From the NCBI GenBank assembly GCA_902802585.1, contig CADCMR010000002.1, positions 62,001 through 126,000 on the forward strand: a stretch of DNA of 64,000 nt, in the 5' to 3' direction. Numbering within the stretch: position 1 is the stretch's first letter; each line of letters begins with the position of its first letter. Positions 17,503-33,460 of the stretch are shown here, piece by piece. The position numbers were made by a program, and so were the translations under genes. The notes under the pieces are model-generated. The model was not told the origin of the DNA. It saw only the letters and a program-made list of their open reading frames with translations, and ran no database searches. Origin of the DNA: an uncultured bacterium (GTDB taxonomy: Bacteria; Verrucomicrobiota; Lentisphaeria; Victivallales; UBA1829).

Positions 17503-17597
17503 AACGTTCTTATAACGTTCAGGAATCAGGATTATTTCAGATAATAGCGGATTTTTTCGGACATCTATTTGACTTTATTCTTAGCGCGTGATAGTGT
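17503..17597 (+). promoter_or_regulatory. GH31 promoter region with repeated motifs
   Basis: TTGACT (17569-17574), 17 bp, TAGTGT (17592-17597) is a fair promoter. Just upstream are a direct repeat AACGTTC-N4-AACGTTC (17503-17520) and an inverted repeat ATTAT-N5-ATAAT (17531-17545), possible binding sites for a regulator. Confidence 0.45.
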
Positions 17598-17673
17598 TAA
17601 GAAAAGAAACGATCACCAAGTCAAAACACGTTCAAATCAACTCAACTTTCCCATGAAAGGAGCCAGATTCCGT

Positions 17674-20556
17674 ATGACGTTCCGTAAAAAACAACATGTC
17701 CCCATGCCCGGATTCGTCCGGATGCGCACCGCCGCGTTCCTCTGTGCGCTCGCCGCGCTCGCGGCGGGGACCGTGTCCGCCGACGACGCGTTCGAGTACA
17801 GGGCCACTGACGCCGGACTTCAGATCAAGGCGGGAAACCTCACGAAGAACATTGAGGTCTTCGGCGACAAAGGGCAGACGCTCCGCGTGACCTCGAACCT
17901 GAACGGCGTCTCCCACGCGAAGCACCCGAGCATCTCCGTCATCGCGAAGCCCGGCAAGGCTGATTTCAAGCTCAAGCAGGATTCGGCGGATGCAGCCACG
18001 TTCACTTCGCAGTCCATCACGGTCAAGGTCGAAAAGAGCACCGGATCGCTGACGTTCACGCGTCCGAACGGCAAGGTCATCCTCGCCGAGAAGTCCGGCG
18101 TCCGCCCCGAAATCAAGGAGGTCACGATCTCCGACGCCCCGACCTACGAGGTTAAACAGACCTTCACGCTCCAGCCGAACGAAGCCGTCTACGGGCTCGG
18201 CCAGGCGATCCGCCCCTTCCTGAACTACCGCGGGCAGGAAATCCTCATCGTCCAAGCGAACATCCCCGCCTACTCGAACGTGCTCACATCGTCCAACGGC
18301 TACGGCATCCTGTGGGACATCAGCTCGCAGTCCGTTTTCAAGGACGACGCGAACGGCATGTCCATCTGGTCGGAAAGCGCGCCCGCCGGCATCGACTACT
18401 ACCTCATGACCGGCAACAGCCTCGACGACGTCGTCACGCAGTACCGCGAGCTCACCGGCGACGCCCCGATGTTCCCGCGCCAGGCGTACGGCTTCTTCAT
18501 GAGCAAGGAACGCTACAGCACGCAGAAGGAGCTGATCGGCATGGTCGAAACCTTCCGCAACAACCACTACCCGCTCGACTTCATCGTGCAGGACTGGCAG
18601 TACTGGACCGACAAGCCCGGCAACTGGACCAGCATGACCTGGGACCCGGAACGTTACCCCGATCCGAAGGCGATGTGCGACACCATCCACAACGACCTCC
18701 ACGCGAAGGTCCTGATCTCCATCTGGCCGACCGTCGGCCTGGACTGCGACCTGGGACGCGAGCTTAAATCGAAGAATCTCCTGTTCGACCCGCCGCACTG
18801 GATCCGCCAGGGTCGCGTGTACGATGCCTACAGCCAAGAAGGCCGCGATATCTACTTCAAGCACGTCAAGAAGGGCCTCCTCGACGTCGGCGTCGATGCC
18901 ACCTGGATGGACGGCACAGAGGTCGAGACGCGTTCCGCCTGCCACAACCAGCGCGACATGATCCGCGACATCAAGGAGAACGGCATCAACGCCATGGGCG
19001 ACTTCACGCGCTACCTGAACTGCTACACGCTCCTCACCACCAAGGGCTGCTACGAAGGCCAGCGCGCCTCCTCCGACAAGCGCGTCTTCACCCTCACCCG
19101 TTCCGCCTGGGCCGGCCAGCAGCGCTTCGCCGCCCTCTCCTGGTCAGGCGATACCACATCCAGCTGGGCGCGCCTCAAGGAAGACATCGTCGGCGGTCTC
19201 TCCGCCTCGCTCTCCGGCCTGCCCTACTGGACCCAGGACACCGGCGGATTCTTCTCCGGCGGATTCCGCGGCATCGACAACCCCGAATACCAGGAGCTGC
19301 TCGCCCGCTGGAACCAGTTCGCGGTCTTCAACCCGGTCTACCGCTGGCACGGCACGGGCTTCAGCAAGGAGCCGTGGCGCTTCAAGGACATCGCACCCGA
19401 GGCGTACAACTCCTACCTCTCCGGCGCGAAGCTCCGCTACCGCATGATGCCCTACGTCTACAGCCTCGCTTGGATGACCACGCAGGACCACTACACCATG
19501 ACCCGCCCGATCATCATGGACTTCCCGGACACCCCCGGCGCGACCACGAATGAAGCGCAGTTCATGTTCGGTCCCTCCATGCTCGTCCAGCCGATCACCC
19601 GTTCCCTGCGCCAGGCCACGCGTCCGCGTCCCCCGGTCATCGACGCATCCGCGCTCACCACGCCCGACGGCGAACCCGGCGTGAAGATCGAATATTTCAA
19701 CGACGAACGTCTCCGCAACAAGGTCAGCACCTCCGTCGAAAAGGTCGTCGACCTCTCCTGGCCCGGTCCGCCCCTCGTGGAATGGCCCCAGGGTCTCCGC
19801 AACGGCGACCACTTCTCCGCCCGCCTCACCGGCTTCATCACCGCGCCCGAGGACGGCAAGTATGAGATCGGCGTCTCCGGCGACGACGGATTCCGGCTAT
19901 GGCTCGACGGCAAACTGGTCGTCGAGGACTGGAACTCGGCGGACGCCCGCTACAAATCCACCGACGTCGAGCTGAAGAAAGGCCAGAAGGTCCAATTCCG
20001 CCTCGACTACTACCAGAACCTCTACACGCGTGAGCTCAAACTCTGCTGGAGGACCCCGGAAGAGCTGAAGAAGTACGCCGCGGACCATGACGATTCCGCC
20101 GTCGAGGTCAAACTCCCCGTCGGCGCCAAGTGGTATGACTACTTCACCAACGAGCTCATCGACGGCGGCAAGACCGTCAGCCGCGCCTGCCCGCTGGACC
20201 AGTTCCCGTTCTTCATCAAGGCCGGCAGCATCATCCCGTTCAACGGCGAGGATACCGAGTACGCCACGCAGAAGACCGCCGCCCCGATGGAAATCCGCGT
20301 CTACCCCGGCAAGGACGCCGCGTTCACCCTGCATGAGGACGACAATGAGACCTACGCCTACGAAAAAGGCCAGTTCTCCGACATCGCCTTCTCCTGGGAC
20401 GACGCCTCCTCCACGCTCAAGATCGGACGCCGCAAAGGCTCCTATCCCGGCATGGAACCCTCCCGCGCATTCCGCGTCACCGTCGTGCGCGACGGCAAGG
20501 TCTCCGAAGGCAAGACCGTGAACTACAGCGGGACCGAGCTCTCCGTGAAACTCTAA
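17674..20556 (+). CDS. Secreted GH31 alpha-glycosidase (alpha-xylosidase-like) with inserted PA14 domain
   Basis: The start at 17674 has AAAGGAG upstream and gives a 960-aa protein with a signal peptide ending about residue 34 (AAGTVSA). The GH31 N-terminal beta domain is followed by the barrel (YGFFMSKERYSTQKEL, LDFIVQDWQYWTD). The likely nucleophile is D413 in TWMDGTE and the acid/base D493 in SWSGDTTSSW. After MFGPSMLVQPIT a PA14 domain is inserted (about residues 665-800; KIEYFNDERLR, GKYEIGVSGDDGFRLWLDG). The sheet then resumes (WYDYFTNELIDGG, FPFFIKAGSIIPF) and ends in a DUF5110-like domain. It probably releases xylose from xyloglucan oligosaccharides, or another alpha-linked sugar. A GH43 gene follows 270 bp downstream. 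Confidence 0.9.
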   Translation: MTFRKKQHVPMPGFVRMRTAAFLCALAALAAGTVSADDAFEYRATDAGLQIKAGNLTKNIEVFGDKGQTLRVTSNLNGVSHAKHPSISVIAKPGKADFKLKQDSADAATFTSQSITVKVEKSTGSLTFTRPNGKVILAEKSGVRPEIKEVTISDAPTYEVKQTFTLQPNEAVYGLGQAIRPFLNYRGQEILIVQANIPAYSNVLTSSNGYGILWDISSQSVFKDDANGMSIWSESAPAGIDYYLMTGNSLDDVVTQYRELTGDAPMFPRQAYGFFMSKERYSTQKELIGMVETFRNNHYPLDFIVQDWQYWTDKPGNWTSMTWDPERYPDPKAMCDTIHNDLHAKVLISIWPTVGLDCDLGRELKSKNLLFDPPHWIRQGRVYDAYSQEGRDIYFKHVKKGLLDVGVDATWMDGTEVETRSACHNQRDMIRDIKENGINAMGDFTRYLNCYTLLTTKGCYEGQRASSDKRVFTLTRSAWAGQQRFAALSWSGDTTSSWARLKEDIVGGLSASLSGLPYWTQDTGGFFSGGFRGIDNPEYQELLARWNQFAVFNPVYRWHGTGFSKEPWRFKDIAPEAYNSYLSGAKLRYRMMPYVYSLAWMTTQDHYTMTRPIIMDFPDTPGATTNEAQFMFGPSMLVQPITRSLRQATRPRPPVIDASALTTPDGEPGVKIEYFNDERLRNKVSTSVEKVVDLSWPGPPLVEWPQGLRNGDHFSARLTGFITAPEDGKYEIGVSGDDGFRLWLDGKLVVEDWNSADARYKSTDVELKKGQKVQFRLDYYQNLYTRELKLCWRTPEELKKYAADHDDSAVEVKLPVGAKWYDYFTNELIDGGKTVSRACPLDQFPFFIKAGSIIPFNGEDTEYATQKTAAPMEIRVYPGKDAAFTLHEDDNETYAYEKGQFSDIAFSWDDASSTLKIGRRKGSYPGMEPSRAFRVTVVRDGKVSEGKTVNYSGTELSVKL

Positions 20557-20572
20557 CGCCTATATGCGAAAA

Positions 20573-20661
20573 CGTGCGCGAGCAAAAGCCGCGCACAACT
20601 ACAGTGGAGGACATGTCCTCCCGGTCCGGGTTGTCATTGATCCAATGATGCCCGGACCGCT
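20573..20661 (+). other. Palindrome and hairpins after the GH31 gene
   Basis: Three structures follow the stop codon. GTGCGCG pairs with CGCGCAC; GGAGGACATGTCCTCC (20606-20621) is a perfect 16-bp palindrome; CGGTCCGGG (20622-20630) pairs with CCCGGACCG (20651-20659), with an inner TCATTG/CAATGA stem. There is no clean T-run, so termination is possible but not certain. Confidence 0.5.
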
Positions 20662-20826
20662 TTATGTAACGTCGGACTGCTTTTCCCTCAAACCGAGTTT
20701 GAACAAATAGTATATATTTTTGAATAAATCCGGCATACCATTCCCGCGCACGCAGGTTATATTATTCGTCAACATTAGTTTCGGTTTTTCACATTTTCTA
20801 ACCTTAACAAATCGGAAAGGTTCACT

Positions 20827-22587
20827 ATGAAACACACCTTCGCACTCCTGGCGCTCGCCGCCGCCGTCTGCTGCTCCGCGGCATGCGCCACGGCCGACGA
20901 CGCCACGGCCGCCGCCGACAACAGCAAGCAGGCCCCCCTCAACCCCATCATCTGGGCGGACGTCCCCGACGTCTCCGTCCTCCGTGTGGGCGACACCTAC
21001 TACATGACCAGCACCACCATGCACATGAACCCGGGCGTACCCGTGATGATGTCCAAGGACCTGGTGAACTGGGAGATCGTCAGCTACTGCTACGACGACC
21101 TGCTGGACGACGACCTGCCGCAGAACGTGAAGAACCGCCTCACGCTCTCCAACGGCCAGAACGAATACGGCAACGGCACCTGGGCGAGCTGCATCCGCTA
21201 CAAGGACGGTACGTTCTACGTCTCCTCCTTCTCCCAGCCCACGAACAAGACCTACATCTGGACCAGCAAGGATCCGACCAAGGGCGACTGGAAGCGCATC
21301 GCCACGCTCCCGCGCTATCACGACCACACCCTCGTGCTTGACAACGACGGCCGCAACTACATGATTTTCGACGGCGGCGACCGCAAGATCGTCGAACTCT
21401 CCGCCGACCTCAAATCGGTCAAGCAGGACAGCGACGTCAGCCCCGGCGGCAGACCGAAACTCCTCATCTCCCGCGCGGACACCGCCCGTGACGCCGGAAA
21501 CACCGGCAGCCTCCTCGAAGGCTCCCAGATGCACCTGATCAACGGCAAGTACTACCTCTTCAACATCGGCTGGCCGTCCGTCCGCAGCGTCTACTGCGCC
21601 CGCGCCGACAAGATCACCGGCCCCTATGAATCCAAGCTCGTCTATCAGTGCGAAGGCATCGCCCAGGGCGGCCTCGTCGACACCCCGGACGGAAAATGGT
21701 ACGCCATGATCTTCGGCGACCGCGGCGGCGTCGGACGCATCCCGTTCCTCGTCCCCGTGACCTGGAAAGACGGCTGGCCGATGATCGGCACCGACGGCGA
21801 CGGCAAGACGCTGCCCGCCCTCCCGATCAACGTGAAGCATCCCGCCATCCCGAAGTGCGTAGCCTCCGACGAGTTCAACCGCAAGTCCGGCGACCGCGAC
21901 CTCCCGCTCGTCTGGCAGTGGAACCACATCCCGGTCAAATCCCTCTGGAGCCTCACCGACCGCAAAGGCTGGATCCGCTTCAAGACCGGCGACGTCGTGA
22001 ACTCCCTTGAAAAAGCCAAAAACACGCTCACGCAGCGCGTGTTCGGCCCCACCTCCACCGCCGAGATCAAGATCGACACCAAGAACATGAAGGACGGCGA
22101 CTATGCCGGCCTCTCCTCCTTCCAGTCCCAGTGGGGCTTCGTCGGCGTCAAGGCGGCCGACGGCAAGAAGACCATCGTCATGTGCACCCCGGCCGGCGGC
22201 GGTCGCGGCGGTCGCGGCGGGCGTCCCGGACAGGGCCCGCAGCAGCAGCCCCAGCAGCCCCAGCAGGCCATGAACGAGATCGCCTCCGTCCCGCTCGACG
22301 GCGACATCGCCTACCTCCGCGTCGAGGTCGACGTTGCTCCGGTCGGCGCCCCCGCCTCTGACGAATACAAGCTCAACGTCCGCAGAAAAGACCAGTCCTT
22401 CTTCTACTACAGCAAGGACGGCAAGACCTGGACGCGCATCGGCAACGCCATCAACATGCCCTACAGTATGCCGCACTTCATGGGCTACCGTTTCGGCATC
22501 TTCAACTTCGCCACGAAGACCGCCGGCGGCTTCGTCGACGTCGACTACTTCCGCCTCGGCACCGACCTCTCCCCCGAGAGCAAGTGA
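20827..22587 (+). CDS. GH43 glycosidase lipoprotein with C-terminal concanavalin A-like domain
   Basis: This 586-aa protein has a signal with a lipobox-like CSAAC near residue 20, and so may be membrane-anchored. The GH43 propeller begins NPIIWADVPDVSVLRVGDTYYMT (shown as a short landmark: WADVPDVSVL) with the candidate base Asp, and has LLEGSQMHLINGKYYLF with the acid Glu and QGGLVDTPDGKWY. The second half (from about residue 345, DEFNRKSGD) matches the beta-sandwich typical of GH43 beta-xylosidases. That sandwich is interrupted by a Gly-Arg/Gln-Pro tract (GGRGGRGGRPG then QQQPQQPQQ). Likely a beta-xylosidase or arabinofuranosidase working with the upstream GH31. Confidence 0.88.
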   Translation: MKHTFALLALAAAVCCSAACATADDATAAADNSKQAPLNPIIWADVPDVSVLRVGDTYYMTSTTMHMNPGVPVMMSKDLVNWEIVSYCYDDLLDDDLPQNVKNRLTLSNGQNEYGNGTWASCIRYKDGTFYVSSFSQPTNKTYIWTSKDPTKGDWKRIATLPRYHDHTLVLDNDGRNYMIFDGGDRKIVELSADLKSVKQDSDVSPGGRPKLLISRADTARDAGNTGSLLEGSQMHLINGKYYLFNIGWPSVRSVYCARADKITGPYESKLVYQCEGIAQGGLVDTPDGKWYAMIFGDRGGVGRIPFLVPVTWKDGWPMIGTDGDGKTLPALPINVKHPAIPKCVASDEFNRKSGDRDLPLVWQWNHIPVKSLWSLTDRKGWIRFKTGDVVNSLEKAKNTLTQRVFGPTSTAEIKIDTKNMKDGDYAGLSSFQSQWGFVGVKAADGKKTIVMCTPAGGGRGGRGGRPGQGPQQQPQQPQQAMNEIASVPLDGDIAYLRVEVDVAPVGAPASDEYKLNVRRKDQSFFYYSKDGKTWTRIGNAINMPYSMPHFMGYRFGIFNFATKTAGGFVDVDYFRLGTDLSPESK

Positions 22588-22748: not shown

Positions 22749-23672
22749 ATGAGCAAAGACAAGAAAAGCGGATATGGTCTGACGCTGTTTATAAGCTTGT
22801 TTATGCTCGTACCGATGGTCCTTGCCTTCATTTTCATTTACAGGAAAGTGTCCTCGAATGGACCATGGCTGTATTATTCCGCATTTTTCCTGATCGGAAT
22901 CACGCCCCGGCTGATCCTGCTCTTCCTGAAACTTCTGTTCGGTTCGGAGTCGGAGCTTCATGGAAACGCGGAGGCGGGAGTTTCGCTTGGGCCGTTGTTT
23001 TATGGCGTTATCTTTTATTTCCCGGTCGAACTCATATTTTTTAAATCGCTTTCCTTATATCTGGAAGAATACCCGAGCTACCACTTCCACTTCGGATGGA
23101 ACGCCGTTTTGTTCCTTTTCCTGATCGTTCTGGTTCAGGCGGGGATGCGCATGTATCAGGATGCCATGGATATTCCGCACCAATTCCGCCGTCTGTATCG
23201 TGCCGTTTACAACCGTGATGGCTGGTTCCCTTACAGTTATTACGGTTCGGGAGAGGTGATAGCTTCGACCTACTGCATGCCGCGCGGCAGGAAATATCAG
23301 GAAGTCGGGATCGTATTAATCGAAAGGCGCAAGAAAGAGAAATACAAAACGGAAGAGGATTATTTGAGCGGACGAGGCGGGTTCCTGTTCACGCCCTTGT
23401 TTCTAATCCGGTCATCGACCGCGATCCGGCCGCCCGCGATCCGGTACGATGGTCCGGAATATATGCGCGAGGGTCCGATCACACTTCAGTTCATGGGCGA
23501 CGGCGCCGCTCTTATCAAGCACTACGAGGCAAACCGGAGCTTCAACCGATATGTCTATTTTTTCCGGCTCCGCAAGTTCCTGCGGCTTCCGTCCGGCTAC
23601 CGGAAAAGCTTCCTGCTCCGCCTGGCTTATTACGGGTTCCGTCCCGTCCTCGTGCCCAAGAAAGACCTCTGA
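22749..23672 (+). CDS. Unknown membrane protein, 307 aa
   Basis: I do not recognise a family. The first 135 residues contain about four hydrophobic helices (LTLFISLFMLVPMVLAFIF, LYYSAFFLIGITPRLILLF, LFYGVIFYFPVELIFF, AVLFLFLIVLVQAG). The remaining half is soluble, basic and aromatic, with REGPITLQFMGDGAALIKHY and a C-terminus ending VLVPKKDL, probably cytoplasmic. The gene is lower in G+C than its neighbours, which could mean recent acquisition. It is flanked by a terminator upstream and a strong promoter downstream, so it looks like a single-gene unit. Confidence 0.72.
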   Translation: MSKDKKSGYGLTLFISLFMLVPMVLAFIFIYRKVSSNGPWLYYSAFFLIGITPRLILLFLKLLFGSESELHGNAEAGVSLGPLFYGVIFYFPVELIFFKSLSLYLEEYPSYHFHFGWNAVLFLFLIVLVQAGMRMYQDAMDIPHQFRRLYRAVYNRDGWFPYSYYGSGEVIASTYCMPRGRKYQEVGIVLIERRKKEKYKTEEDYLSGRGGFLFTPLFLIRSSTAIRPPAIRYDGPEYMREGPITLQFMGDGAALIKHYEANRSFNRYVYFFRLRKFLRLPSGYRKSFLLRLAYYGFRPVLVPKKDL

Positions 23673-23837: not shown

Positions 23838-23866
23838 TTGCATTTTATGCGAATATGCTGTATAAT
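23838..23866 (+). promoter_or_regulatory. Strong promoter of the envelope lipoprotein operon
   Basis: TTGCAT (23838-23843), 17 bp, TATAAT (23861-23866). The leader to the first gene is about 130 nt. The rest of the gap from 23673 holds no gene I can see. Confidence 0.75.
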
Positions 23867-24002: not shown

Positions 24003-25172
24003 ATGAAGAAACTGTTTATCACTGCATTGACAGTGGCTGTGCTGGCGCTCGTCGCGGCATCGCAATGCACCGCGGAGTCAGACCGGACGATTGAGACGGA
24101 AAACGAAAAGAAGACCACGACCACGACAACCACGACGACCGTGATCACGGAGACGGTCAAAACGAAGGCAAAGGAAAAGCCCGCCTGGAAGCCGTTCAAG
24201 GTCTGTGTGCTGGACTTCACCTCGATCGACATTTCCGGACAGGTCCGGTTCCTCGACGGAAAAAACAGCCCGATCGTCATCCCGCCGCAGAACACGCTGA
24301 ACACAGCCGACCACCAGACCATCAACTCGATCATGCAGGGCTACGTCCGCATGATTGACGCGTGGGACAACAGCTGGACGAACTCGGCGAACCGCGAGGC
24401 CCAGGTCGACGACAACGTCTTCACGCGCCAGAAGGCGATCGACCTGTACAACACGATCGTGAAGGGCGCGCCGCGCCCGATGGTGATCGGAGCGGAGTAC
24501 CTGAGCGCGTACCTTGGCAAGCACAACGACGTCTTCGGGACCATGGACGTCTCGCAGGTCGCCGCCGCCATGCAGAAGCTCCAGGCGCAGCCTGATTTCC
24601 CGCGCGATTTCATGCTCCGCATCGCGAAGGAGACCGGAGCCACGCACCTGATCTATGGCACCGTCTCCGACATCCACAGCAAGACCCGTTCGTTCACAGG
24701 CTACGGGATCAGCACCAACACCACCACGTACGAGCTGGACGTCACGATCAAGATGATCGACCTCGCGGCGCAGCACTCCGTTTACAGCAACGTCTACACG
24801 GGCAGCTACCGCGAACAGCGCCCGGTCAGCAACGACGCGTTCGACAACAACATCTTCCTGTCGCTTATGAAGTCCGCGCTGGAACAGGCCGCCGAGGACC
24901 TCTACGACGTCTGCAAGGAAGGCCGCAAGAACAAAGTGACTGTCACGCCCATGCCGTACATGGTCACGGTCACGCCGACCGGCGGAGCTGATTTCAAGGC
25001 GTCGCAGGCCACAGTCTATGCCGACGGCATCGTCGTCGGCGCGGGCGGCGAGGCGTTCCCGCTCCCCGAAGGCACGCACAAGATTGAGATCAAGGCGGAC
25101 GGATACCAGACCAAGACGCTCACGCTGGACGTGAAGTCCGACCAGGCCGTCACCACCACCATGGAACGCTAA
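24003..25172 (+). CDS. Exported CsgG-like protein with C-terminal PEGA domain
   Basis: A 389-aa protein with a signal peptide (about 1-24, ending AASQCTA; the Cys at 22 could be lipidated). A Thr run (nine in a row near residue 40) forms a linker. The body resembles the CsgG/curli-assembly-type fold: KVCVLDFTSIDISGQ, MLRIAKETGATHLIYGTVSDI and TYELDVTIKMIDLAAQHSVYSN. The C-terminal 75 residues form a PEGA domain (VTPTGGADFKASQATVYADG, LPEGTHKIEIKADGYQ), a small beta fold common on envelope proteins. It opens a six-gene co-directional operon. True curli subunit genes are absent, so a general envelope role is more likely than curli secretion. Confidence 0.75.
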   Translation: MKKLFITALTVAVLALVAASQCTAESDRTIETENEKKTTTTTTTTTVITETVKTKAKEKPAWKPFKVCVLDFTSIDISGQVRFLDGKNSPIVIPPQNTLNTADHQTINSIMQGYVRMIDAWDNSWTNSANREAQVDDNVFTRQKAIDLYNTIVKGAPRPMVIGAEYLSAYLGKHNDVFGTMDVSQVAAAMQKLQAQPDFPRDFMLRIAKETGATHLIYGTVSDIHSKTRSFTGYGISTNTTTYELDVTIKMIDLAAQHSVYSNVYTGSYREQRPVSNDAFDNNIFLSLMKSALEQAAEDLYDVCKEGRKNKVTVTPMPYMVTVTPTGGADFKASQATVYADGIVVGAGGEAFPLPEGTHKIEIKADGYQTKTLTLDVKSDQAVTTTMER

Positions 25173-25190
25173 CCGGAAAGGATGACCGCA

Positions 25191-26381
25191 ATGAACTTCA
25201 AGAAACTCATCACCGCTTTTGCCTGCGTCGTCCTGTCCGTCGGCGCATTCGCCGCCGATAAGCTCGCCGTCGCCGAACCCGTCGGAAAGGGCGGCGTGCC
25301 CGCTGGCGACATCGAAGCCTTCTGGGGCATCCTGGAATCCTCGATCCAGTCCGACGAATACACGCTGGTCTCCCGCGGCGCGCTGAAACAGATGCTCACG
25401 GAAATCGGACTCACGACCAGTTCCGACCTTGTGAACCTGAACTCCAGGCAGAAGGCAAAGCTCGGCGAAGTCGAGGGCGTGAAATACATCCTCGTCTCCG
25501 AGATCAGCAAATTCGGCTCGCGCCTGAACTGCACCATGCGCATCCTCGACGCAACCACGGGCGAAATCGACCAGGCGCGCACCGCGAACATGCGCGTGAA
25601 GGACCTCGACGAACTCGCCGACCAGATCGAATCCGCCCTGCAGAAGCTCCTGTCCGACGACAAGTCGCTCCACCGTTCCGCGATCCTCGCCCCGGTCATC
25701 AAGGTCACCGCGCCCGGTTACCTCGCCGACGACTTCAACGTCCGACTTGAGAACGAGATGCTCGACAAGGGGCTGCGCCTCCAGAACCTCCAGTCCGTGG
25801 CGAAGATCCTGAAGAAAAACGACATGGACAATCTGAACGAGCTGGAGCCGAAGCTGTACGCCAAGGTCGGAAAACTCCTCGAAGTCGAAATGCTCCTTCA
25901 GGCGACAATCACCCGTTTCGAGATCGAAAAGATCGCCTACAACGTCGCCGAGACCGGCGCCAGCGGATTCCGCTACATCGGCAACATCGAGGGAAGCGTC
26001 CGCATCATCTCCGCCCAGACCGGCGAAACGCTCGGCAGCGTCCCGTTCGACGAACGCGTCGACTTCCGCACGATTCCGATCTCGACGCGCCGCGACTGGA
26101 CCGTCGACGACTACGGCAAGCACCTCATCCGCACCGTCATCCCGCAGAAGGTCATCCCCGGCATCATGAAGTCCCCGGCGTTCAAGGACAAGAATCCGCC
26201 GACTGCCGAAGCGGTGGAAAAAAAGCCCGAAGCGGCGGAGAAGAAAGCTCCCCCGGAGAAACCCGCCGGCGAAGCAAGGCCGCCCGTAAAGTCCTCCGGA
26301 TTCATCGGCGTTGACCAGCTCCTGAAAAAGGCGGCGGAAGGCGCCGACCCCACGATTGAACTCGAAAGCGTCTCCGAATAA
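25191..26381 (+). CDS. Exported CsgG-related protein
   Basis: The start at 25191 is preferred, since GGAAAGG sits 9 bases before it; an ATG at 25182 overlaps that site. The 396-aa product has a Sec signal peptide (about 1-21, ending GAFA). It resembles CsgG/TolB-N-type envelope proteins: KLAVAEPVGKGGV, YTLVSRGALKQMLTEIGL, VEGVKYILVSEISKFG and RILDATTGEIDQ. A second, similar half follows from about residue 165 (ILAPVIKVTAPGYLADDF, AKVGKLLEVEMLLQATI), suggesting duplication. The C-terminal part is Pro-Ala-Lys-Glu rich. Function is not known. Confidence 0.72.
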   Translation: MNFKKLITAFACVVLSVGAFAADKLAVAEPVGKGGVPAGDIEAFWGILESSIQSDEYTLVSRGALKQMLTEIGLTTSSDLVNLNSRQKAKLGEVEGVKYILVSEISKFGSRLNCTMRILDATTGEIDQARTANMRVKDLDELADQIESALQKLLSDDKSLHRSAILAPVIKVTAPGYLADDFNVRLENEMLDKGLRLQNLQSVAKILKKNDMDNLNELEPKLYAKVGKLLEVEMLLQATITRFEIEKIAYNVAETGASGFRYIGNIEGSVRIISAQTGETLGSVPFDERVDFRTIPISTRRDWTVDDYGKHLIRTVIPQKVIPGIMKSPAFKDKNPPTAEAVEKKPEAAEKKAPPEKPAGEARPPVKSSGFIGVDQLLKKAAEGADPTIELESVSE

Positions 26382-26385
26382 CGCC

Positions 26386-27924
26386 ATGAACATCCGCCGT
26401 TTCCTCTTCATCCTCTCGCACAACATCCTCCCCGCTGTCGCGGCCGGCGTCATCCTCGTCGGCTGCTCCAGCGTCGTGAACTCGCACAAGCAGAAGGAGG
26501 ACATGATGGCGGACTACCTGGAGGGCGACAACGAGGGCGCGCTGGACGAGATCGAGTACAAGCTCCGCGAACCGGCGTGGTACAACTCCTCGGTCGTCGG
26601 CACCGGCGACGAGCTGATGTGGCGGCTGGAAGCCGGCAGCATGAACTTCCACCTCGGCAACTTCGAGGAGTGCATCGAACAGCTCAGGATCGCCGAGGAC
26701 ATGATCAACGACTACGACGAACGCGCCGAAGTCAGCGCGCGCGACCTCGGCGCCGAAACCGGGGCCGCCCTGACCAACCTCAACGCCCTACCCTACCGCG
26801 GGTACTGCCGCGACCGCATCGCGCTCGCAGTCTACAAGGCGCTGGCTTACCTCGGAAAAGGCGACGAAGAAGCGTTCCACGCCCAGATCCGACGTCTGCG
26901 CAACGAGCAGAAGAAGGTCCAGGACGACTACAGCAAGTTCTTCGAGCAGGAGAAGGCGCGCCTCGAGGAGGACAAGGCGAAGAATCCCGACGAGGCGAAG
27001 AAGACCGAGTCGCTGGGAAGCATCGAGAAGCTTTCCGGAAGCCCGGACAACGCCGCGTTCAAGGCCAACATGGCGAAGGTCAAAAAGGTCGCGAACAAAG
27101 GCTACGGGAACTTCCTCAACCCCGCCGCGATCTTCCTCTCCGGGCTCGGATCCATCCGTGACGGCGAATACGACAACGCCCGTATCGACTTCCGCCACCT
27201 CAGCGAAGCCATGCCGAACAATCCCCTGTTCCGCCAGTATTACGTCACGGTCCTGAAGAAGGCGGAGCGGGAAATTCCCGAAAACCTCGCCGACGTCCAG
27301 CCGTTCGATTTCCCGCTGGACCGGGACTGCGTGTTCGTGGTCTTCGCGAACGGACGGACCGCGGCGCTTGAGCAAAGCGCCATCTACTTCCCGGTCATGA
27401 CCGCATGGCCCGAGTGCGCGTTCTACGACGCGCCCTTCCAGAACCTCGAAGCCGAAGCCGGAGGAAAGAAATACAGCTCCATGATCCTCGCCGACATGGA
27501 CGGCATCCTCGCGCAGGAATATGAGGAGCGCCTCCCCGGCATGATCGCGCGTATCGTCCTGAACACACTCATCAAGGATGGCGCCTACTACGCCGGACTC
27601 GCCGTGATCGCCGCGCAGAAGGACATGGACCCCGCGGTCCAGGCCGCCGCGCTCGCGACCGTCGCCATCGGCGGAGCCGCCTACCGTGCTGCAATGAACA
27701 CCGCCGACACGCGCAGCTGGGAGATCCTGCCGAAGGAATTCCAGCTCACGCAGTTCCCGATGCCGACGGACCGGAAGGTCGATCTCAAACTCAACCTGAA
27801 CGGCGGAATGGTGGTTTCCAAAGAACTTCGGCTCCCGGACGACTGCAGGTCCGCCATCATCTTCGTCGACGCACCCAGCGTGCAGAACGTGGCGTTCCAC
27901 GTCCTGCCGATCAAATCCAAATAA
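26386..27924 (+). CDS. COG3014-like lipoprotein with TPR-like helical region
   Basis: The start at 26386 lies 4 bases after the previous stop and gives 512 aa. The signal has a lipobox (VILVGCSS, Cys near 27). An N-terminal TPR-like segment (YKLREPAWYNSS, WRLEAGSMNFHLGNFEECIEQLRIAEDM taken in short pieces) leads into a long charged coiled coil (KKVQDDYSKFFEQEKARLEE). A C-terminal beta-rich region ends IIFVDAPSVQNVAFHVLP. The layout matches the COG3014 family, which in proteobacteria neighbours LpoB- and YcfL-like genes, as it does here. The molecular role is unknown. Confidence 0.7.
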   Translation: MNIRRFLFILSHNILPAVAAGVILVGCSSVVNSHKQKEDMMADYLEGDNEGALDEIEYKLREPAWYNSSVVGTGDELMWRLEAGSMNFHLGNFEECIEQLRIAEDMINDYDERAEVSARDLGAETGAALTNLNALPYRGYCRDRIALAVYKALAYLGKGDEEAFHAQIRRLRNEQKKVQDDYSKFFEQEKARLEEDKAKNPDEAKKTESLGSIEKLSGSPDNAAFKANMAKVKKVANKGYGNFLNPAAIFLSGLGSIRDGEYDNARIDFRHLSEAMPNNPLFRQYYVTVLKKAEREIPENLADVQPFDFPLDRDCVFVVFANGRTAALEQSAIYFPVMTAWPECAFYDAPFQNLEAEAGGKKYSSMILADMDGILAQEYEERLPGMIARIVLNTLIKDGAYYAGLAVIAAQKDMDPAVQAAALATVAIGGAAYRAAMNTADTRSWEILPKEFQLTQFPMPTDRKVDLKLNLNGGMVVSKELRLPDDCRSAIIFVDAPSVQNVAFHVLPIKSK

Positions 27925-27935
27925 GGAGAACAACC

Positions 27936-28394
27936 ATGAAGAAAATATGCCTGGTCGGATGCTTCGCCGCGGCGCTCGCGCTCGCCGCCTGCCAGAACTC
28001 CGTGAACACGATCGAAAACGCGGACAAGACCATGACGCCGAACACCGTCAGCGACACCCGTTTCGTGACCGACGGCTTCCTGAAGAGACGCCTCGCGCTC
28101 CAGAGCCTCACGCTGGGACAGACCGCCGACGGCTACAAGCGCGCGCAGGTCGAAGTCACGAACGTCCGAACCGGCGTCGCCGCGCAGTTCTGGAGCAGCA
28201 TCACGCGTGAAAACCCGTACCACATCCGCTACCGCTTCACCTGGTTCACCGAGGACGGCATGGCGGTGAACCACACGGTCCTCGCCGACTGGCAGGACGC
28301 CGTCATCATCCCCGGAGAGACGCTCTTTCTCCAGTCCGTCGCCCCGAACAAGAACTGCAGCGATTTCAAAATCAGCCTCAAAGAGGCAGACTAA
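27936..28394 (+). CDS. YcfL-like (DUF1425) lipoprotein
   Basis: A 152-aa lipoprotein with the lipobox LALAAC (Cys near 20). The mature domain matches YcfL in size and pattern: LTLGQTADGYKRAQVEVTN, YHIRYRFTWFTEDGM and GETLFLQSVAPN, ending in a short beta strand KISLKEAD. In E. coli ycfL precedes lpoB, the same order as here, with 18 bp between the genes. Its function is unresolved; a helper role in wall synthesis is inferred from the context. Confidence 0.8.
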   Translation: MKKICLVGCFAAALALAACQNSVNTIENADKTMTPNTVSDTRFVTDGFLKRRLALQSLTLGQTADGYKRAQVEVTNVRTGVAAQFWSSITRENPYHIRYRFTWFTEDGMAVNHTVLADWQDAVIIPGETLFLQSVAPNKNCSDFKISLKEAD

Positions 28395-28412
28395 CCATAA
28401 AGGACACAGCAC

Positions 28413-29060
28413 ATGAACGCACGTTTTCTGATCCTCGGTCTTTCCGCCGCCGGAGCCCTCGCGCTCGCCGCGTGTGAAAGCAATAACACCGTCATCTACG
28501 ACCCAGCCACCACCAAGACCGGGCTCCGCGCCACCAGGACGGTCTCCAGCGAGGAAATGCGCGAAGTCACCGTCGCCGCCGTCCAGGAGGCCATGACCAA
28601 CACCAAGTTTACGTCCTTCCTCAGGAAATACAGGCAGGAAGTCGGCGATCCGGACGCCTGCCCCATCCTGAAACTCGACAAGACCATCAACAACACCGAC
28701 GATCCCGACCTGAATACTTCCGAGATCACCGACATGCTCTTCGAGGAACTGCTGAATGCCGGAAAGGTCGAAGTCACCATGGCGGAAGGCACGGGCCGCA
28801 CCCAGGCGATCGCCGCCTCCCGCGACCTCGAATACGACGAGAACTTCGACCAGAGCACCGTCGCGAAACGCGGCACGCTCCAGGCGGCGCGCCTCGTCCT
28901 CCGCCCGAAAGTCACGTCCAACTCCGTGAGCGACGGAGGCAAACAGGCCGTGACCCGCACCTTCGTGCTGGAAATGGCGGACGTGCAGACCGGGCTGGTC
29001 ATGTGGCGCTTCACCAAGCAGCTCGCGTTCATGAAGAAGAAAAGCTCCGTCGGCTGGTAA
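28413..29060 (+). CDS. lpoB: Penicillin-binding protein activator LpoB-like lipoprotein
   Basis: LpoB is an outer-membrane lipoprotein that reaches through peptidoglycan to stimulate the glycosyltransferase PBP1b in E. coli. This 215-aa protein has a lipobox (LALAACES), then an LpoB-type core: EEMREVTVAAVQEAMTN, CPILKLDKTINNTDDPDLNT, ITDMLFEELLNAGKVEV and a final strand pair ending VQTGLVMWRFTKQLAF with the common SSVGW end. The partner PBP is not in the window. The disordered linker that spans the periplasm in E. coli is short or absent here. Confidence 0.85.
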   Translation: MNARFLILGLSAAGALALAACESNNTVIYDPATTKTGLRATRTVSSEEMREVTVAAVQEAMTNTKFTSFLRKYRQEVGDPDACPILKLDKTINNTDDPDLNTSEITDMLFEELLNAGKVEVTMAEGTGRTQAIAASRDLEYDENFDQSTVAKRGTLQAARLVLRPKVTSNSVSDGGKQAVTRTFVLEMADVQTGLVMWRFTKQLAFMKKKSSVGW

Positions 29061-29106
29061 TCCGGTTCCGGTTTTCATTCGTCGCATTGAAAGATGCCGC
29101 TCCTCC

Positions 29107-29130
29107 GCTCCGTGTTGTATGGCACGGAGC
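29107..29130 (+). other. Stem-loop between lpoB and the last operon gene
   Basis: GCTCCGTG pairs perfectly with CACGGAGC across an 8-nt loop. No T-run follows. It may trim or dampen the transcript before the final gene. Confidence 0.45.
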
Positions 29131-29172
29131 CATGCGCGACGCATCTGAATCACAGATAAGGAGATTCATCCC

Positions 29173-29940
29173 ATGCGCAACTTCATCCTCTCCGCGGCGC
29201 TCGCCGCGACGGCGCTCGCCCTGAGCGCATGCACCAACATCGCCAAGTTCGACTACGGCGCCGCCCCCGGCACGCTGGCGAAACTCCGCGAGCCCGGTTC
29301 CGCTAGGAAATCCGTCGCCGTCATGCCGTTCATGGATCAGCGCGGCGTGAAGTATTACGACCCCGCCCAGGCGGACCTCGCCGCCGACCGCCCCGCAGGC
29401 GACCACGGCTCCTTCTTCCTCGGCTTCATCCCGCTCATGCCGTACGGCTACGTCGAAAAGGAACAGCCCGAGAACAGCGAAGACTTCGTTTCGCTCGGAC
29501 GCTTCCATTTCGACGTCCAGAACGACCTCGCCGCCGCCGCGATCGCGAGCCTGAAGAGCTCCGGTCTCTTTTCGAATGTCGCGAAGGCGAACAATGCCGC
29601 GCAGGCCGCGGACGCCGACTACATCTGGCGCGGCTCCGTGACCAGCACGTTCTACCGCGGACGCATGTTCTCCTACGGCATCACCTACTGCTTCTCGCAC
29701 ATCCTGTGGATCGTGGGCATCCCGAGCGGAAGCTCCACCAACGAGCTCGGAGTGAAGTTCGAGCTGGTGGACCGCGCCAGCGGCGAAGTCGTCTGGGAAT
29801 ACAGCTATCTTAACAGCGACTATCTCAACCACTGGATCTATGCGCGCGTCGGCAAGGACGTCAGCATCTATCCGCGCCTGATGAAGGAAGCCATGAACAG
29901 CGCGCTGTACAAGCTCTCGCAGGACATGCCCGACCTGTGA
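29173..29940 (+). CDS. Envelope lipoprotein, last gene of the LpoB operon
   Basis: A 255-aa lipoprotein with lipobox LALSAC near residue 19. It has an N-terminal KSVAVMPFMDQRGVKYYDP segment like the start of CsgG/LpoB-type domains, then FLGFIPLMPYGYVEKEQPE, then repeated beta-strand segments (DADYIWRGSVTSTFYRG, LGVKFELVDRASGEVVWEY). The latter resemble GNA1162/DUF799-type envelope lipoproteins, but I cannot assign it firmly. It sits 112 bp after lpoB, with a stem-loop in between, and is followed by two terminators. Confidence 0.72.
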   Translation: MRNFILSAALAATALALSACTNIAKFDYGAAPGTLAKLREPGSARKSVAVMPFMDQRGVKYYDPAQADLAADRPAGDHGSFFLGFIPLMPYGYVEKEQPENSEDFVSLGRFHFDVQNDLAAAAIASLKSSGLFSNVAKANNAAQAADADYIWRGSVTSTFYRGRMFSYGITYCFSHILWIVGIPSGSSTNELGVKFELVDRASGEVVWEYSYLNSDYLNHWIYARVGKDVSIYPRLMKEAMNSALYKLSQDMPDL

Positions 29941-29975: not shown

Positions 29976-30020
29976 CGCCCCCGGAATCCAACCTGGATCG
30001 CCGGGGGCGTTTCGTTTCTT
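29976..30020 (+). terminator. Terminator of the envelope operon (first)
   Basis: CGCCCCCGG (29976-29984) pairs with CCGGGGGCG (30001-30009), with an inner ATCC/GGAT pair, followed by a T-rich tract. Confidence 0.85.
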
Positions 30021-30027
30021 CGTTTTG

Positions 30028-30067
30028 AGGAAACAGCCTCAACATGCGGTAAGGCTGTTTCCTTTTT
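30028..30067 (+). terminator. Terminator of the envelope operon (second)
   Basis: A perfect 12-bp stem, AGGAAACAGCCT (30028-30039) with its complement at 30052-30063, 12-nt loop, followed by TTTT. A backup to the first. Confidence 0.8.
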
Positions 30068-30073
30068 GCTGGC

Positions 30074-33000
30074 TTACAGCGAGGCAAGGACGCCCTGCGT
30101 GCGCATGGCTTCCGTCTCGAACACCGATTCCGCGGTGCTTTCGAGGAACGATCCCGACGCGGCATATTCCTTGAACAGCGCGGAACCGTCGTCGCCGAAC
30201 TTGAGCGTGATCTGGTCGACGGAAACGCCGGAGAACCTGACGCTGTTCGCGCCGTCGGTGTAGGTGAGCGTCGCTTCGTCCCAGTGGAAAAGATCGCCTG
30301 TTTCAAACCACAGCGTGACCGTTCCGCCCGCGGACTGGGAGATTACGTCGGCGCCCCAGTTCCCGCCGAACGCAAAGATATCGTTTCCGCCGCCGCCCGC
30401 GAGCTTATCGTCGCCCGCGCCGCCCGCGATCAAGTCATCGCCCGTTCCGCCGGTGATCCGGTCGTTCCCCGCGTCGCCGAACAGCCGGTTGCCGCCCTCG
30501 GCTCCCCAGAGCACGTCGTTGCCCGCGCCGCCGCGCACGGTCATCCCTGCGAGTTCGGCGGTGTAGCGGTCGCTGGTCATATCGACCACGTCCGCGCCCG
30601 CGCCCGCGCGGATTTCGCGGATGAGGCTGAGACGCGCGGCATCGCCGTACTCGGAATAGATGTCGTCCATGAAGAGCGCGTCGCCGTTGTTGCAGTCGGA
30701 GAGATACAGGATGTTCGCGTCGGAATCCGACCCGGTGAACGTGTCGCGGATGCGGTTCTTGCCCGTGATGCTCGCGACCTCGCCCGTCACGGTGTTCTTT
30801 GCCTGGTAGCGCGAACTCCAAAGGTCGTTCGCGGAGACAGTCGCGAAGAAGACGTCCGAACGGCTGTTTGCATTGGATACGACCTGGCGCGGCGAGCTTT
30901 CCGCGGACGTCCACGAGGAGGACTCCTTCGTGAATTCATTCCCCGCCTCCGTCACTTGGCAGGAATACGCGCCCGACGCGGAAACGACGTCGAACGCCTG
31001 ACCGTCCGTGGCGATGCGGATCGCGCCGTCAAATGTGTCATCCTGCGCGATCTCGACCCAGTAGTCCGAGCCAGTGGAGGCGCCGCACCACGCAATGACC
31101 GAAGCGTCGTTCGAGACCTCGGGAACGAGAAGCCGCATGATCTGATGGACGATCGTCAGCACGCCGTCGTCCGCCTGGCGCAGACGCAGCAGCCAGTTGT
31201 CCCCGATGACCGCAAGGTCGTTCCCGAGAGCGCCGTCCTTCAGCGTGAAGACATCGGACAGGGCTTCGTCATCATGCTTGATTGACAGACTGCCCGTAAA
31301 CGTCCCGGCGGTCGAGGCGAACGTCGCGATGGCGGGTCCGCCCATCAGGGGGGACCAGCATTTGACAAGATAGGTCCCGCTGCCGCTGAACGCGCCGAGG
31401 TCGCTGACCACGGGATTGTATCCAAGTCCGACGTTGAACGTGATCTTTCCTTCGTTCACGACCGCCGCATTGAGCGTGTTCACGCCAGCGAACGCCAGCG
31501 AGCCGTTGTTGTACACGGTATCGGACGAAGTCGCGAGGACGATGTTTTCGAGCTTCATGTTTCCGCCGTTCCAGACCGCGCCGCCCTCCTTGGCGGAATT
31601 GCCGCTGAACGTGCTGCCGCTGACCGTAACGACGCCCGAGGAGGTTGGATCGATCCAGAGCGCACCGCCCTGCTCCGTCGTTTCGCCGCCGTTCCCGGTA
31701 AATACGCAGCCGCTGACGGCAAGCGAAACGGACGCATACGAATAGGAAATGGCTCCGCCGAAAGCGGCGGTGTTGGAATCGAACACCGCGCCCGATACCG
31801 TTGCCGCTGTATTGCCGGAATCCCACACGGCGATCGCACCGCCGTCATTGCCCGCGCTGTTCGCAGTAAACGTGCCGCCGGTCACGCTCAACGGACCGAA
31901 ACACTGGCAGACCGCGCCGCCGCCCCAGCCCGCCGTGTTGCCGGAGAAATCCGTGTCGGCGATGCTCGTCATGTCCGAAATCCCGGTCTGGATGTAGATG
32001 CCGCCGCCATAGCTCGCGGCGTTGTCGGCGAACGTCGCGCCGGAAACCGTCAGATTCGCGGTGTCGGAACTGCCGAAGTCGATGAACGTGGCGATCGCGC
32101 CGCCCTGCACCGCGCTGTTCGAGCTGAACGTACCGCCGGTCACGGTCATGCTGCCGTTTTTCGTGTTTGCGACCGCGCCGCCGAACGACGTCCAGGAGTT
32201 CGTTCCGGTATCAATGACGCTGTTCCCGCTGAAAACCGAATCGGCGACAGTCATGGTTGCGTAGTTGTAGATTGCGCCGCCCTGGTAGTCGGCGCTGTTC
32301 GTGTCGAACACGCAGCCCTCGACCGCGGCAGTGCTCACGGCGTTTTTGTACGTGTCATTGAAGATCGCGCCGCCGCTCCGGGAGAAGTTCCCGCTGAACG
32401 TGCTGCCGAAGATCGTCGCGGTCGCACCGTTGTGGAGCTCGATCGCGCCGCCGCCCGGCGCATAATCCTTGGCGAAATCGGGATCGCCTTCGGTCGAGTT
32501 GCCGACGAACAGCGTCCCGGTCACGGTCATCGTGCCCGCGTTCTGCTGGATCGCGCCGCCGAAATACGCAATATTGCCGGAGAACGTGCCCCCGGTGACG
32601 GTGTTATTCGAGTACATCAGCGCCAGCGCGCCGCCCGCCGCTCCGGTCACAAAAGACGGGGCAACCGTCGAACCTTCCACGGGGAGCTCCATGCCGTCCG
32701 CATGGTTGCCGGAGAACACGCTGTCCTGCACGGAGAGCGTGCCGCCGTAGGTCTCGATTGCACCGCCGTGCCCGGCATAGCCGTTCAGCGGGTTCACCGT
32801 ACAGCCGGAGAACGTGGCGCCGGTAAGGAGGATCGCGCCCGGTCCGTTCGGCGTGTAGTCCGCGGACGACAGGCATGCGCCCGCGCCGTACCACCCGAAC
32901 GCGTTTTCGCAGACCGGGGATCCGCTCAGCGTGCCGCCGTTGATGTTGATTTTGGCGATTTTGCCGCCCTCGTCGACCTCGACCAGACCGTCCGCGTACA

Positions 33001-33196
33001 CTTCGATCCCGGTAAACGACGCGTCTTTTCCGACATACGCGGTATCATAGTCGCATTGATCGACATATTCGGCATCGACGATTGCCGTATACGTGCCGAT
33101 GTTCACGCCGCTGACCGAGGGCTCTTCCACCTTGATCGTGCCGTCCAGAGACAGGCGCACGAAGCCGTCTTTGAATTTTGTGTCTACAACTGCCAT
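30074..33196 (-). CDS. Giant Pmp-type beta-helix protein with RTX repeats
   Basis: The start at 33196 has GAAAGGA upstream and gives 1040 aa beginning MAVVDTKFKDGF with no signal peptide. Residues about 100-600 hold many chlamydial-Pmp-like repeats of the type FSGN followed by GGAI (SGNFSRSGGAIFND, DNAASYGGGIYIQ, ANSAGNDGGAIAV), expected to fold as a right-handed beta-helix. Near residues 880-945 are nonapeptide RTX repeats (GGAGNDVLWG, GDAGNDRITGG, GGAGDDKLAGG) that bind calcium. The tail ends GVLASL. RTX proteins are exported by type I systems through an uncleaved C-terminal signal, which fits the lack of an N-terminal signal. A secreted or surface adhesin is likely; no type I exporter gene is in the window. 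Confidence 0.85.
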   Translation of the reverse strand: MAVVDTKFKDGFVRLSLDGTIKVEEPSVSGVNIGTYTAIVDAEYVDQCDYDTAYVGKDASFTGIEVYADGLVEVDEGGKIAKININGGTLSGSPVCENAFGWYGAGACLSSADYTPNGPGAILLTGATFSGCTVNPLNGYAGHGGAIETYGGTLSVQDSVFSGNHADGMELPVEGSTVAPSFVTGAAGGALALMYSNNTVTGGTFSGNIAYFGGAIQQNAGTMTVTGTLFVGNSTEGDPDFAKDYAPGGGAIELHNGATATIFGSTFSGNFSRSGGAIFNDTYKNAVSTAAVEGCVFDTNSADYQGGAIYNYATMTVADSVFSGNSVIDTGTNSWTSFGGAVANTKNGSMTVTGGTFSSNSAVQGGAIATFIDFGSSDTANLTVSGATFADNAASYGGGIYIQTGISDMTSIADTDFSGNTAGWGGGAVCQCFGPLSVTGGTFTANSAGNDGGAIAVWDSGNTAATVSGAVFDSNTAAFGGAISYSYASVSLAVSGCVFTGNGGETTEQGGALWIDPTSSGVVTVSGSTFSGNSAKEGGAVWNGGNMKLENIVLATSSDTVYNNGSLAFAGVNTLNAAVVNEGKITFNVGLGYNPVVSDLGAFSGSGTYLVKCWSPLMGGPAIATFASTAGTFTGSLSIKHDDEALSDVFTLKDGALGNDLAVIGDNWLLRLRQADDGVLTIVHQIMRLLVPEVSNDASVIAWCGASTGSDYWVEIAQDDTFDGAIRIATDGQAFDVVSASGAYSCQVTEAGNEFTKESSSWTSAESSPRQVVSNANSRSDVFFATVSANDLWSSRYQAKNTVTGEVASITGKNRIRDTFTGSDSDANILYLSDCNNGDALFMDDIYSEYGDAARLSLIREIRAGAGADVVDMTSDRYTAELAGMTVRGGAGNDVLWGAEGGNRLFGDAGNDRITGGTGDDLIAGGAGDDKLAGGGGNDIFAFGGNWGADVISQSAGGTVTLWFETGDLFHWDEATLTYTDGANSVRFSGVSVDQITLKFGDDGSALFKEYAASGSFLESTAESVFETEAMRTQGVLASL
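30360..30560 (-). repeat. RTX nonapeptide repeat block
   Basis: This part of the gene encodes about five to six GGxGxDxLxG-type repeats in tandem, the calcium-binding beta-roll of RTX proteins. Confidence 0.8.
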
Positions 33197-33460
33197 GCTT
33201 GCGGTCCTTTCTTGTGTTTGCGCAGGAACGCAGGCACGACGGACACAGCGGACCGCAGCCCGTTCATACCGCCCATGCGGCGGAAAAACGGACTGTCCGC
33301 GATGCCTTCCCTGTCTTGTGTTCCGGGCACAATTCCGCCTTCGGCGGAGGGAACTTGAACGGAGCGGGGATCTGGCTCGCCGCACCATGCGGCTCACAGT
33401 TGCGCGACAGTCCGTGAATTTCACACGGTTCACCCGGATTCCGTCCGGTTAAAGATGTTT
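33197..33460 (-). other. Long 5' leader of the Pmp/RTX gene
   Basis: About 265 nt lie between the promoter and the start codon. The leader holds small hairpins such as CCGCC-TTC-GGCGG (near 33340) but no convincing small gene. A long leader suggests post-transcriptional control. Confidence 0.4.

What the first reader, a model, noticed from the sequence alone, without database searches (positions are those of the whole stretch)
24003..29940. Six-gene envelope operon pairing LpoB, YcfL and COG3014-like proteins with two CsgG-like proteins
One strong promoter (23838-23866) and two tandem terminators bound six co-directional genes. All six products are exported and at least four carry lipoboxes. 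The ycfL-lpoB order matches E. coli, where LpoB activates PBP1b, but two CsgG-like proteins (one with a PEGA domain), a TPR/coiled-coil lipoprotein and a further lipoprotein are added, and no curli subunit is present. This looks like an enlarged wall-synthesis control complex for a diderm PVC bacterium. The genes are seen; the joint function is inference.
Basis: partly seen in the sequence, partly recalled or inferred. Interest (0 to 1): 0.62.

Follow-up and report, generated by a model that had tools for sequence, protein, structure and literature searches.

The report
Conserved outer-membrane LpoB–YcfL–COG3014 operon
A gut bacterium carries an operon of exported envelope proteins, four of them lipoproteins, that recurs across a whole phylum; it includes a relative of E. 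coli's cell-wall activator LpoB, yet most bacteria that keep it lack the class of enzyme LpoB switches on, so the set probably does something older and different.

Summary
Six co-directional genes (24003-29940) lie behind a conserved promoter and end at two tandem terminators. The last four encode lipoproteins; the first two have ordinary secretion signals. Families: LpoB/CsgG-fold with PEGA (P1), tandem CsgG-fold (P2), COG3014-like TPR lipoprotein (P3), YcfL/DUF1425 (P4), LpoB (P5), diverged LpoB-like (P6).

P1-P5 is a phylum-wide module; P6 is local. The P3-YcfL-LpoB core also occurs in Planctomycetota, Azospirillum, Aeromonas and Methyloprofundus.

The wall-synthesis reading fails its main test. 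In 288 Verrucomicrobiota genomes LpoB goes with P3 (165 both, 17 and 5 alone), not with class A PBPs: 130 of 182 LpoB genomes have no GT51 domain, while 287 of 288 have FtsW/RodA. The own genome has one class A PBP, without the UB2H domain that LpoB docks on. P3-linked LpoBs have a short tether (median 61 residues from lipid Cys to the conserved NxT; E. coli 90).

Best reading: an ancient outer-membrane-anchored periplasmic complex of TolB-N/FlgT/LpoB-fold subunits with a TPR lipoprotein. E. coli ycfL-lpoB looks like a remnant co-opted for PBP1b. The molecular task is inferred, not shown.

The parts
23838..23866 (+). Promoter TTGCAT-N17-TATAAT of the operon
   Evidence: Only TTG-N20-TATAAT in the 64 kb window; conserved upstream of P1 in six same-genus genomes
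24003..25172 (+). P1: exported LpoB/CsgG-fold protein with C-terminal PEGA domain, type I signal peptide
   Evidence: PEGA 21.6 bits, cut-off 20.8; hhalign to P2, P5 and P6 97/94/93% with deep alignments and 77/13/90% with strict ones, reversed-sequence controls under 1%; orthologues with PEGA across the phylum
25191..26381 (+). P2: exported protein with two tandem TolB-N/FlgT/CsgG-fold domains (residues 21-160 and 157-336) and a disordered tail; no lipobox
   Evidence: CsgG PF03783 25.0 bits; AlphaFold2 model pLDDT 76; VIA-align Z 14.7 FlgT, 13.5 GNA1162, 13.1 PelC, 11.7 CsgG, 11.2 LpoB
26386..27924 (+). P3: COG3014-like lipoprotein, TPR-like superhelix (33-305) plus C-terminal beta domain interrupted by a long Ala/Gly-rich helical hairpin (371-437)
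   Evidence: AlphaFold2 model pLDDT 86.6, pTM 0.86; best PDB matches are TPR proteins only; present in 170 of 288 phylum genomes
27936..28394 (+). P4: YcfL family lipoprotein (DUF1425)
   Evidence: PF07233 48.4 bits, cut-off 28.3
28413..29060 (+). P5: LpoB family lipoprotein with a short tether
   Evidence: PF13036 81.3 bits, cut-off 22.3; TIGR02722 94.6 bits, under its cut-off 110.55; Cys-to-NxT 72 residues including an in-domain insertion, against 90 in E. coli
29173..29940 (+). P6: diverged LpoB-like lipoprotein, found only in near relatives
   Evidence: hhalign to P5 95-96% probability; absent from most distant loci
29976..30009 (+). First intrinsic terminator, 9-nt arms
30028..30063 (+). 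Second terminator, 12-nt perfect arms then T-run; lies between the operon and a converging gene, so it may serve both strands

Best explanation
The operon encodes an outer-membrane-anchored periplasmic complex. P3 (TPR lipoprotein), P4 (YcfL) and P5 (short-tethered LpoB) form the ancestral core at the inner face of the outer membrane. P1 and P2 are soluble periplasmic subunits of the same TolB-N/FlgT/LpoB fold, which in FlgT, PelC and CsgG builds rings or oligomers at the outer membrane. P6 is a recent extra subunit. The complex does not work by activating a class A PBP. It most likely serves outer-membrane assembly, export or outer membrane-to-wall attachment. E. coli LpoB is a derived member that lost P3, gained a long tether and was co-opted to activate PBP1b. 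Shown here: families, fold, co-conservation, gene order, tether length, absence of UB2H and usually of class A PBP. Inferred: physical complex, oligomerisation, cellular task, direction of evolution.
For: LpoB and P3 co-occur in 165 of 288 phylum genomes (17 and 5 alone; Fisher p 1.7e-52, relatedness ignored) and at family level 41 vs 3 vs 0 vs 18. In the class of Methyloprofundus, 37 of 39 genomes with a strong LpoB have P3 and only one P3 genome lacks LpoB. In 71 P3 loci with enough downstream sequence LpoB follows in 67 and YcfL in 62; 50 of 69 with enough upstream sequence have at least one P1/P2-like gene and 42 have two. P3-YcfL-LpoB in Azospirillum, Aeromonas, Methyloprofundus and Planctomycetota. 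LpoB against GT51: 52 both, 130 LpoB only, 52 GT51 only. Complete genomes of Lentisphaerae WC36 and zth2 have P3 and LpoB but no GT51. Own PBP lacks UB2H. Tether 61 residues median in 26 gammaproteobacterial and 144 PVC sequences, against 90 in E. coli. P2 fold matches.
Against: No interaction, localisation or phenotype data. Strict-alignment homology of P1 and P2 to P5 is weak. A few PVC LpoBs show Cys-to-NxT distances of 86-91 in an automatic count. LpoB, P3 and P1/P2 are not adjacent in every genome; in one lineage (for example G226, G235, G158) LpoB lies elsewhere.
Confidence: 0.5

Rival explanations
1. It is a wall-synthesis control complex: P5 activates the host's class A PBP as E. coli LpoB activates PBP1b, with the other subunits as regulators.
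For: Pfam LpoB well above cut-off, all 26 sampled members hit the TIGR02722 LpoB model; ycfL-lpoB order as in E. coli; the own genome does have one class A PBP.
Against: That PBP is GT51 + transpeptidase without UB2H; UB2H hits in the genome are UvrB/Mfd; most LpoB-bearing relatives have no GT51; short tether; TIGR02722 cut-off not reached by the window protein.
Confidence: 0.1
2. The module regulates another wall enzyme (SEDS-bPBP pair or a hydrolase) from the outer membrane.
For: FtsW/RodA in 287 of 288 genomes, so a target exists wherever the module does; TPR lipoproteins such as LpoP and CpoB and LpoB-fold proteins are known PBP regulators (PMC7267771).
Against: No wall gene recurs next to the module in the flank clustering; the module is absent from about 40% of genomes that have SEDS proteins.
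Confidence: 0.2
3. The proteins form an outer-membrane export channel or its periplasmic collar, CsgG- or PelC-like.
For: P2 resembles PelC, CsgG and FlgT; several subunits of one ring-forming fold.
Against: P2 has no lipobox and is much shorter per domain than CsgG; no curli or exopolysaccharide gene recurs in the flanks.
Confidence: 0.15
4. Co-transcribed but functionally separate envelope lipoproteins.
For: No interaction data; fold families are generic.
Against: Gene order and co-occurrence kept across two classes of distant bacteria.
Confidence: 0.05

Closest known systems
E. coli ycfL-lpoB (b1104-b1105)
   Same: DUF1425 followed directly by LpoB; same LpoB domain family
   Different: E. 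coli has no P3, P1, P2 or P6 beside it; its LpoB has a tether about 30 residues longer and lacks the conserved C-terminal tail (9 against 17 residues after the invariant Trp); its partner PBP1b has UB2H (PMC3060616)
P3-YcfL-LpoB clusters of Azospirillum TSH100, Aeromonas caviae and Methyloprofundus
   Same: Same three genes in the same order, same short LpoB tether
   Different: Two upstream PEGA and CsgG-fold genes usually absent or placed downstream (Azospirillum has a DUF6844 gene and one LpoB-fold gene after lpoB); unannotated as a system
FlgT (Vibrio flagellar T-ring protein)
   Same: Middle domain is the closest structural match of P2 domain 2, Z 14.7; ancestral P2 also carries a FlgT_C-like domain
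   Different: No flagellar gene in the operon; the window's P2 has lost the C-terminal domain and gained a second N-terminal one
CsgG curli channel
   Same: Fold; PF03783 above cut-off for P2
   Different: No lipobox, no curli genes, closer in fold to FlgT, GNA1162 and PelC
GNA1162 / DUF799 lipoprotein of Neisseria
   Same: Second best structural match of P2, Z 13.5, 115 residues at 2.0 A
   Different: GNA1162 is a lipoprotein; no sequence-level match found

Membership tests
LpoB (peptidoglycan synthase activator) | LpoB domain (PF13036) above curated cut-off | tested here: met
   81.3 bits against 22.3
LpoB (peptidoglycan synthase activator) | NCBIfam equivalog TIGR02722 at its trusted cut-off | tested here: not met
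   94.6 bits against 110.55 for the window protein; all 26 sampled relatives match the model at E 1e-5 or better
LpoB (peptidoglycan synthase activator) | Outer-membrane lipoprotein signal | tested here: met
   Lipobox LAAC at residue 21, +2 residue E; outer-membrane sorting itself not testable
LpoB (peptidoglycan synthase activator) | Long disordered tether that reaches PBP1b across the wall | tested here: not met
   Cys-to-NxT about 60 residues in P3-linked LpoBs (72 here with an in-domain insertion) against 90 in E. coli
LpoB (peptidoglycan synthase activator) | Cognate class A PBP with UB2H docking domain in the genome | tested here: not met
   One GT51 PBP without UB2H; UB2H hits are UvrB/Mfd; genome 92.9% complete, 13 same-genus genomes agree
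LpoB (peptidoglycan synthase activator) | Stimulates PBP1b activity | not testable with these tools
   Needs biochemistry
YcfL | DUF1425 domain next to lpoB | tested here: met
   48.4 bits against 28.3; adjacent genes; same in E. coli
COG3014 | Membership of the COG itself | not testable with these tools
   No COG library; P3 homologues sit beside annotated YcfL and LpoB in Azospirillum, which fits
CsgG channel | CsgG fold / PF03783 | tested here: met
   25.0 bits against 20.8; Z 11.7 to CsgG
CsgG channel | Lipidated N-terminus | tested here: not met
   Type I signal in P2 of the window and nearly all relatives
CsgG channel | Transmembrane beta-hairpins forming the barrel | tested here: inconclusive
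   P2 domain 2 is about 180 residues and aligns to 157 of 248 CsgG residues; hairpins were not examined atom by atom
CsgG channel | Curli subunit or accessory genes in the operon | tested here: not met
   None among the six genes by Pfam or NCBIfam

The most novel reading that the evidence does not exclude
LpoB's role as PBP1b activator is a late co-option. The ancestral and still prevalent form is a short-tethered subunit of a conserved outer-membrane complex (COG3014-like TPR lipoprotein, YcfL, LpoB, FlgT/CsgG-fold partners) that works in bacteria without class A PBPs, and most proteins now auto-named 'penicillin-binding protein activator LpoB' outside enterobacteria are misnamed.
Probability: 0.5. 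Interest if true: 0.75.

Novelty: new variant of a known kind. Interest (0 to 1): 0.55.

Why it matters
LpoB was described as restricted to enterobacteria and recently evolved together with UB2H (PMC3060616, using a 100-bit cut-off). The domain family instead runs through Verrucomicrobiota, Planctomycetota and Proteobacteria in one gene order. In Verrucomicrobiota most genomes that carry it have no class A PBP. That makes the origin of a textbook outer-membrane regulator testable, gives YcfL a context, warns against the automatic name 'PBP activator', and points at an uncharacterised envelope complex in hundreds of species.

Tried and rejected
COG3014 gave no paper in the held library, and COG3014+LpoB together none. 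Papers on YcfL were incidental. PDB sequence searches with P2 and P6 gave nothing. UB2H hits in relatives first looked like possible PBP1b but are UvrB and Mfd. A search for other recurrent neighbours found none across distant families apart from a small exported protein next to P3 in eight loci. PDB comparison of P3 gave only TPR matches; its C-terminal beta/helical-hairpin part was barely tested by that list, so no claim of a new fold is made. The first hhalign run mixed borderline members between families; the strict rerun is weaker for P1-P5 and P2-P5 and both are reported. 'of' does not take locus handles.

Full report
What is there. The window is contig 2, 62001-126000, of a 2.6 Mb draft genome. 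Same-genus contigs match ruminant-gut Lentisphaeria records by length (for example RUG12414, RUG12541, RGIG3616), so this is a rumen-type lentisphaerial bacterium (inference). Six genes run 24003-29940. Spacing, promoter and terminators support one transcription unit; the 112-nt gap before P6 leaves room for a separate signal. The promoter has a perfect -10 and a poor -35, so 'strong' is too strong a word, but it is unique in the window and conserved in the genus.

The proteins. P4 is YcfL (DUF1425) and P5 is LpoB by Pfam. P2 passes the CsgG cut-off and P1 the PEGA cut-off. Profile comparison links P1, P2, P5 and P6 to one another and not to P3 or P4, where only signal peptides match. With deep alignments the probabilities are 93-97% except P2-P6 (29%). 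With strict alignments P5-P6 (95%), P1-P6 (90%) and P1-P2 (77%) stand; P2-P5 falls to 35% and P1-P5 to 13%; reversed-sequence controls are under 1%. A model of P2 shows two tandem domains: the first like TolB's N-terminal domain (Z 11.7), the second like FlgT's middle domain (14.7), GNA1162 (13.5), PelC (13.1), CsgG (11.7) and LpoB (11.2). The alignment shows that most relatives have one such domain plus a C-terminal FlgT_C-like part that the window lineage lost. P3 models well (pLDDT 86.6): a TPR-like superhelix, then a beta domain split by an Ala/Gly-rich helical hairpin. Only its TPR part finds solved relatives.

Conservation. Maps of 80 loci from the phylum and 80 named loci show P1-P2-P3-P4-P5 again and again, with P6 confined to near relatives and extra LpoB copies in some lineages. 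The trio P3-YcfL-LpoB also occurs in Azospirillum, where PGAP names YcfL and LpoB but leaves P3 'hypothetical', in Aeromonas, in Methyloprofundus and in two Planctomycetota.

Test of the wall-synthesis idea. In E. coli LpoB works by binding the UB2H domain of PBP1b, reaching it with a long disordered tether, and the source paper held both LpoB and UB2H to be recent and enterobacterial (PMC3060616, PMC6220978). Three results speak against transfer of that mechanism. First, the own genome's single class A PBP has GT51 and transpeptidase domains, a weak PBP1C-like tail and no UB2H; apparent UB2H hits are UvrB and Mfd. Second, in 288 genomes of the phylum LpoB is present in 182, P3 in 170, GT51 in 104, FtsW/RodA in 287. 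LpoB and P3 coincide (165 both), LpoB and GT51 do not (52 both, 130 LpoB only, 52 GT51 only, odds ratio 0.42); 28 families have LpoB in the majority and GT51 in none, and eight have the reverse. These counts ignore relatedness, but the family-level table says the same. Two closed lentisphaerial genomes, WC36 and zth2, carry LpoB and P3 and no GT51. That some PVC bacteria lack class A PBPs is known (PMC8406291); that LpoB stays is the new part. Third, in the class of Methyloprofundus (194 genomes) 37 of 39 strong LpoB genomes have P3, while UB2H is in 110 genomes and only weakly associated: 29 of 39 LpoB genomes have it, 81 UB2H genomes have no LpoB (the 'strong' threshold E<1e-20 was set after seeing the list). 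P3-linked LpoBs keep a median of 61 residues from lipidated Cys to the conserved NxT in 26 gammaproteobacterial and 144 PVC sequences, against 90 in E. coli, and keep a C-terminal tail that E. coli lacks. Gammaproteobacteria with P3, LpoB and UB2H together may still use LpoB as an activator; this was not tested.

Reading. The most economical account is an old outer-membrane-anchored complex of P3, YcfL and LpoB, extended in PVC bacteria by two soluble relatives of FlgT/CsgG type, one with a PEGA domain. E. coli ycfL-lpoB would be what is left after P3 was lost and LpoB retuned to PBP1b. Complex formation, ring formation and the cellular task are inference from fold relatives and co-conservation. 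I put 0.5 on this account, 0.2 on control of other wall enzymes, 0.15 on an export role and 0.1 on class A PBP activation.

Novelty. All parts belong to known fold families, and the core trio can be seen in public annotation of Azospirillum, so this is a new variant of a known kind. No paper on the cluster was found in the held library, which misses most subscription journals.

Noticed in passing
window 30074-33433 (-): Large surface protein with Chlamydia PMP-type repeats and RTX calcium-binding nonapeptides converges on the operon's terminator; conserved at this spot in the genus.
   Followed up: partly
window 17569-22587 (+), 45549-47540 (+): Plant-fibre genes: GH31 with PA14 insert, GH43 beta-xylosidase type, alpha-L-arabinofuranosidase with CBM.
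   Followed up: no
window 22749-23669 (+): 307-aa membrane protein just upstream of the promoter, no family in Pfam or NCBIfam.
   Followed up: no
P3 residues 371-437 (window about 27496-27696): Long Ala/Gly-rich helical hairpin inserted in the beta domain, followed by the near-invariant motif NTADxRxWxxLP; could pack against membrane or line an assembly.
   Followed up: no
L125:11411-12121 (-) and seven other loci: A small exported protein of unknown function sits about 10 nt from P3 in eight loci of more distant families.
   Followed up: no
L075:4530-6351 (-), L076:4925-6865 (-): Three tandem LpoB-like genes before P6 in one genus, suggesting P6 arose by LpoB duplication.
   Followed up: no
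L142:7391-8734 (+): DUF6844 protein directly after lpoB in the Azospirillum cluster, a possible extra partner.
   Followed up: no
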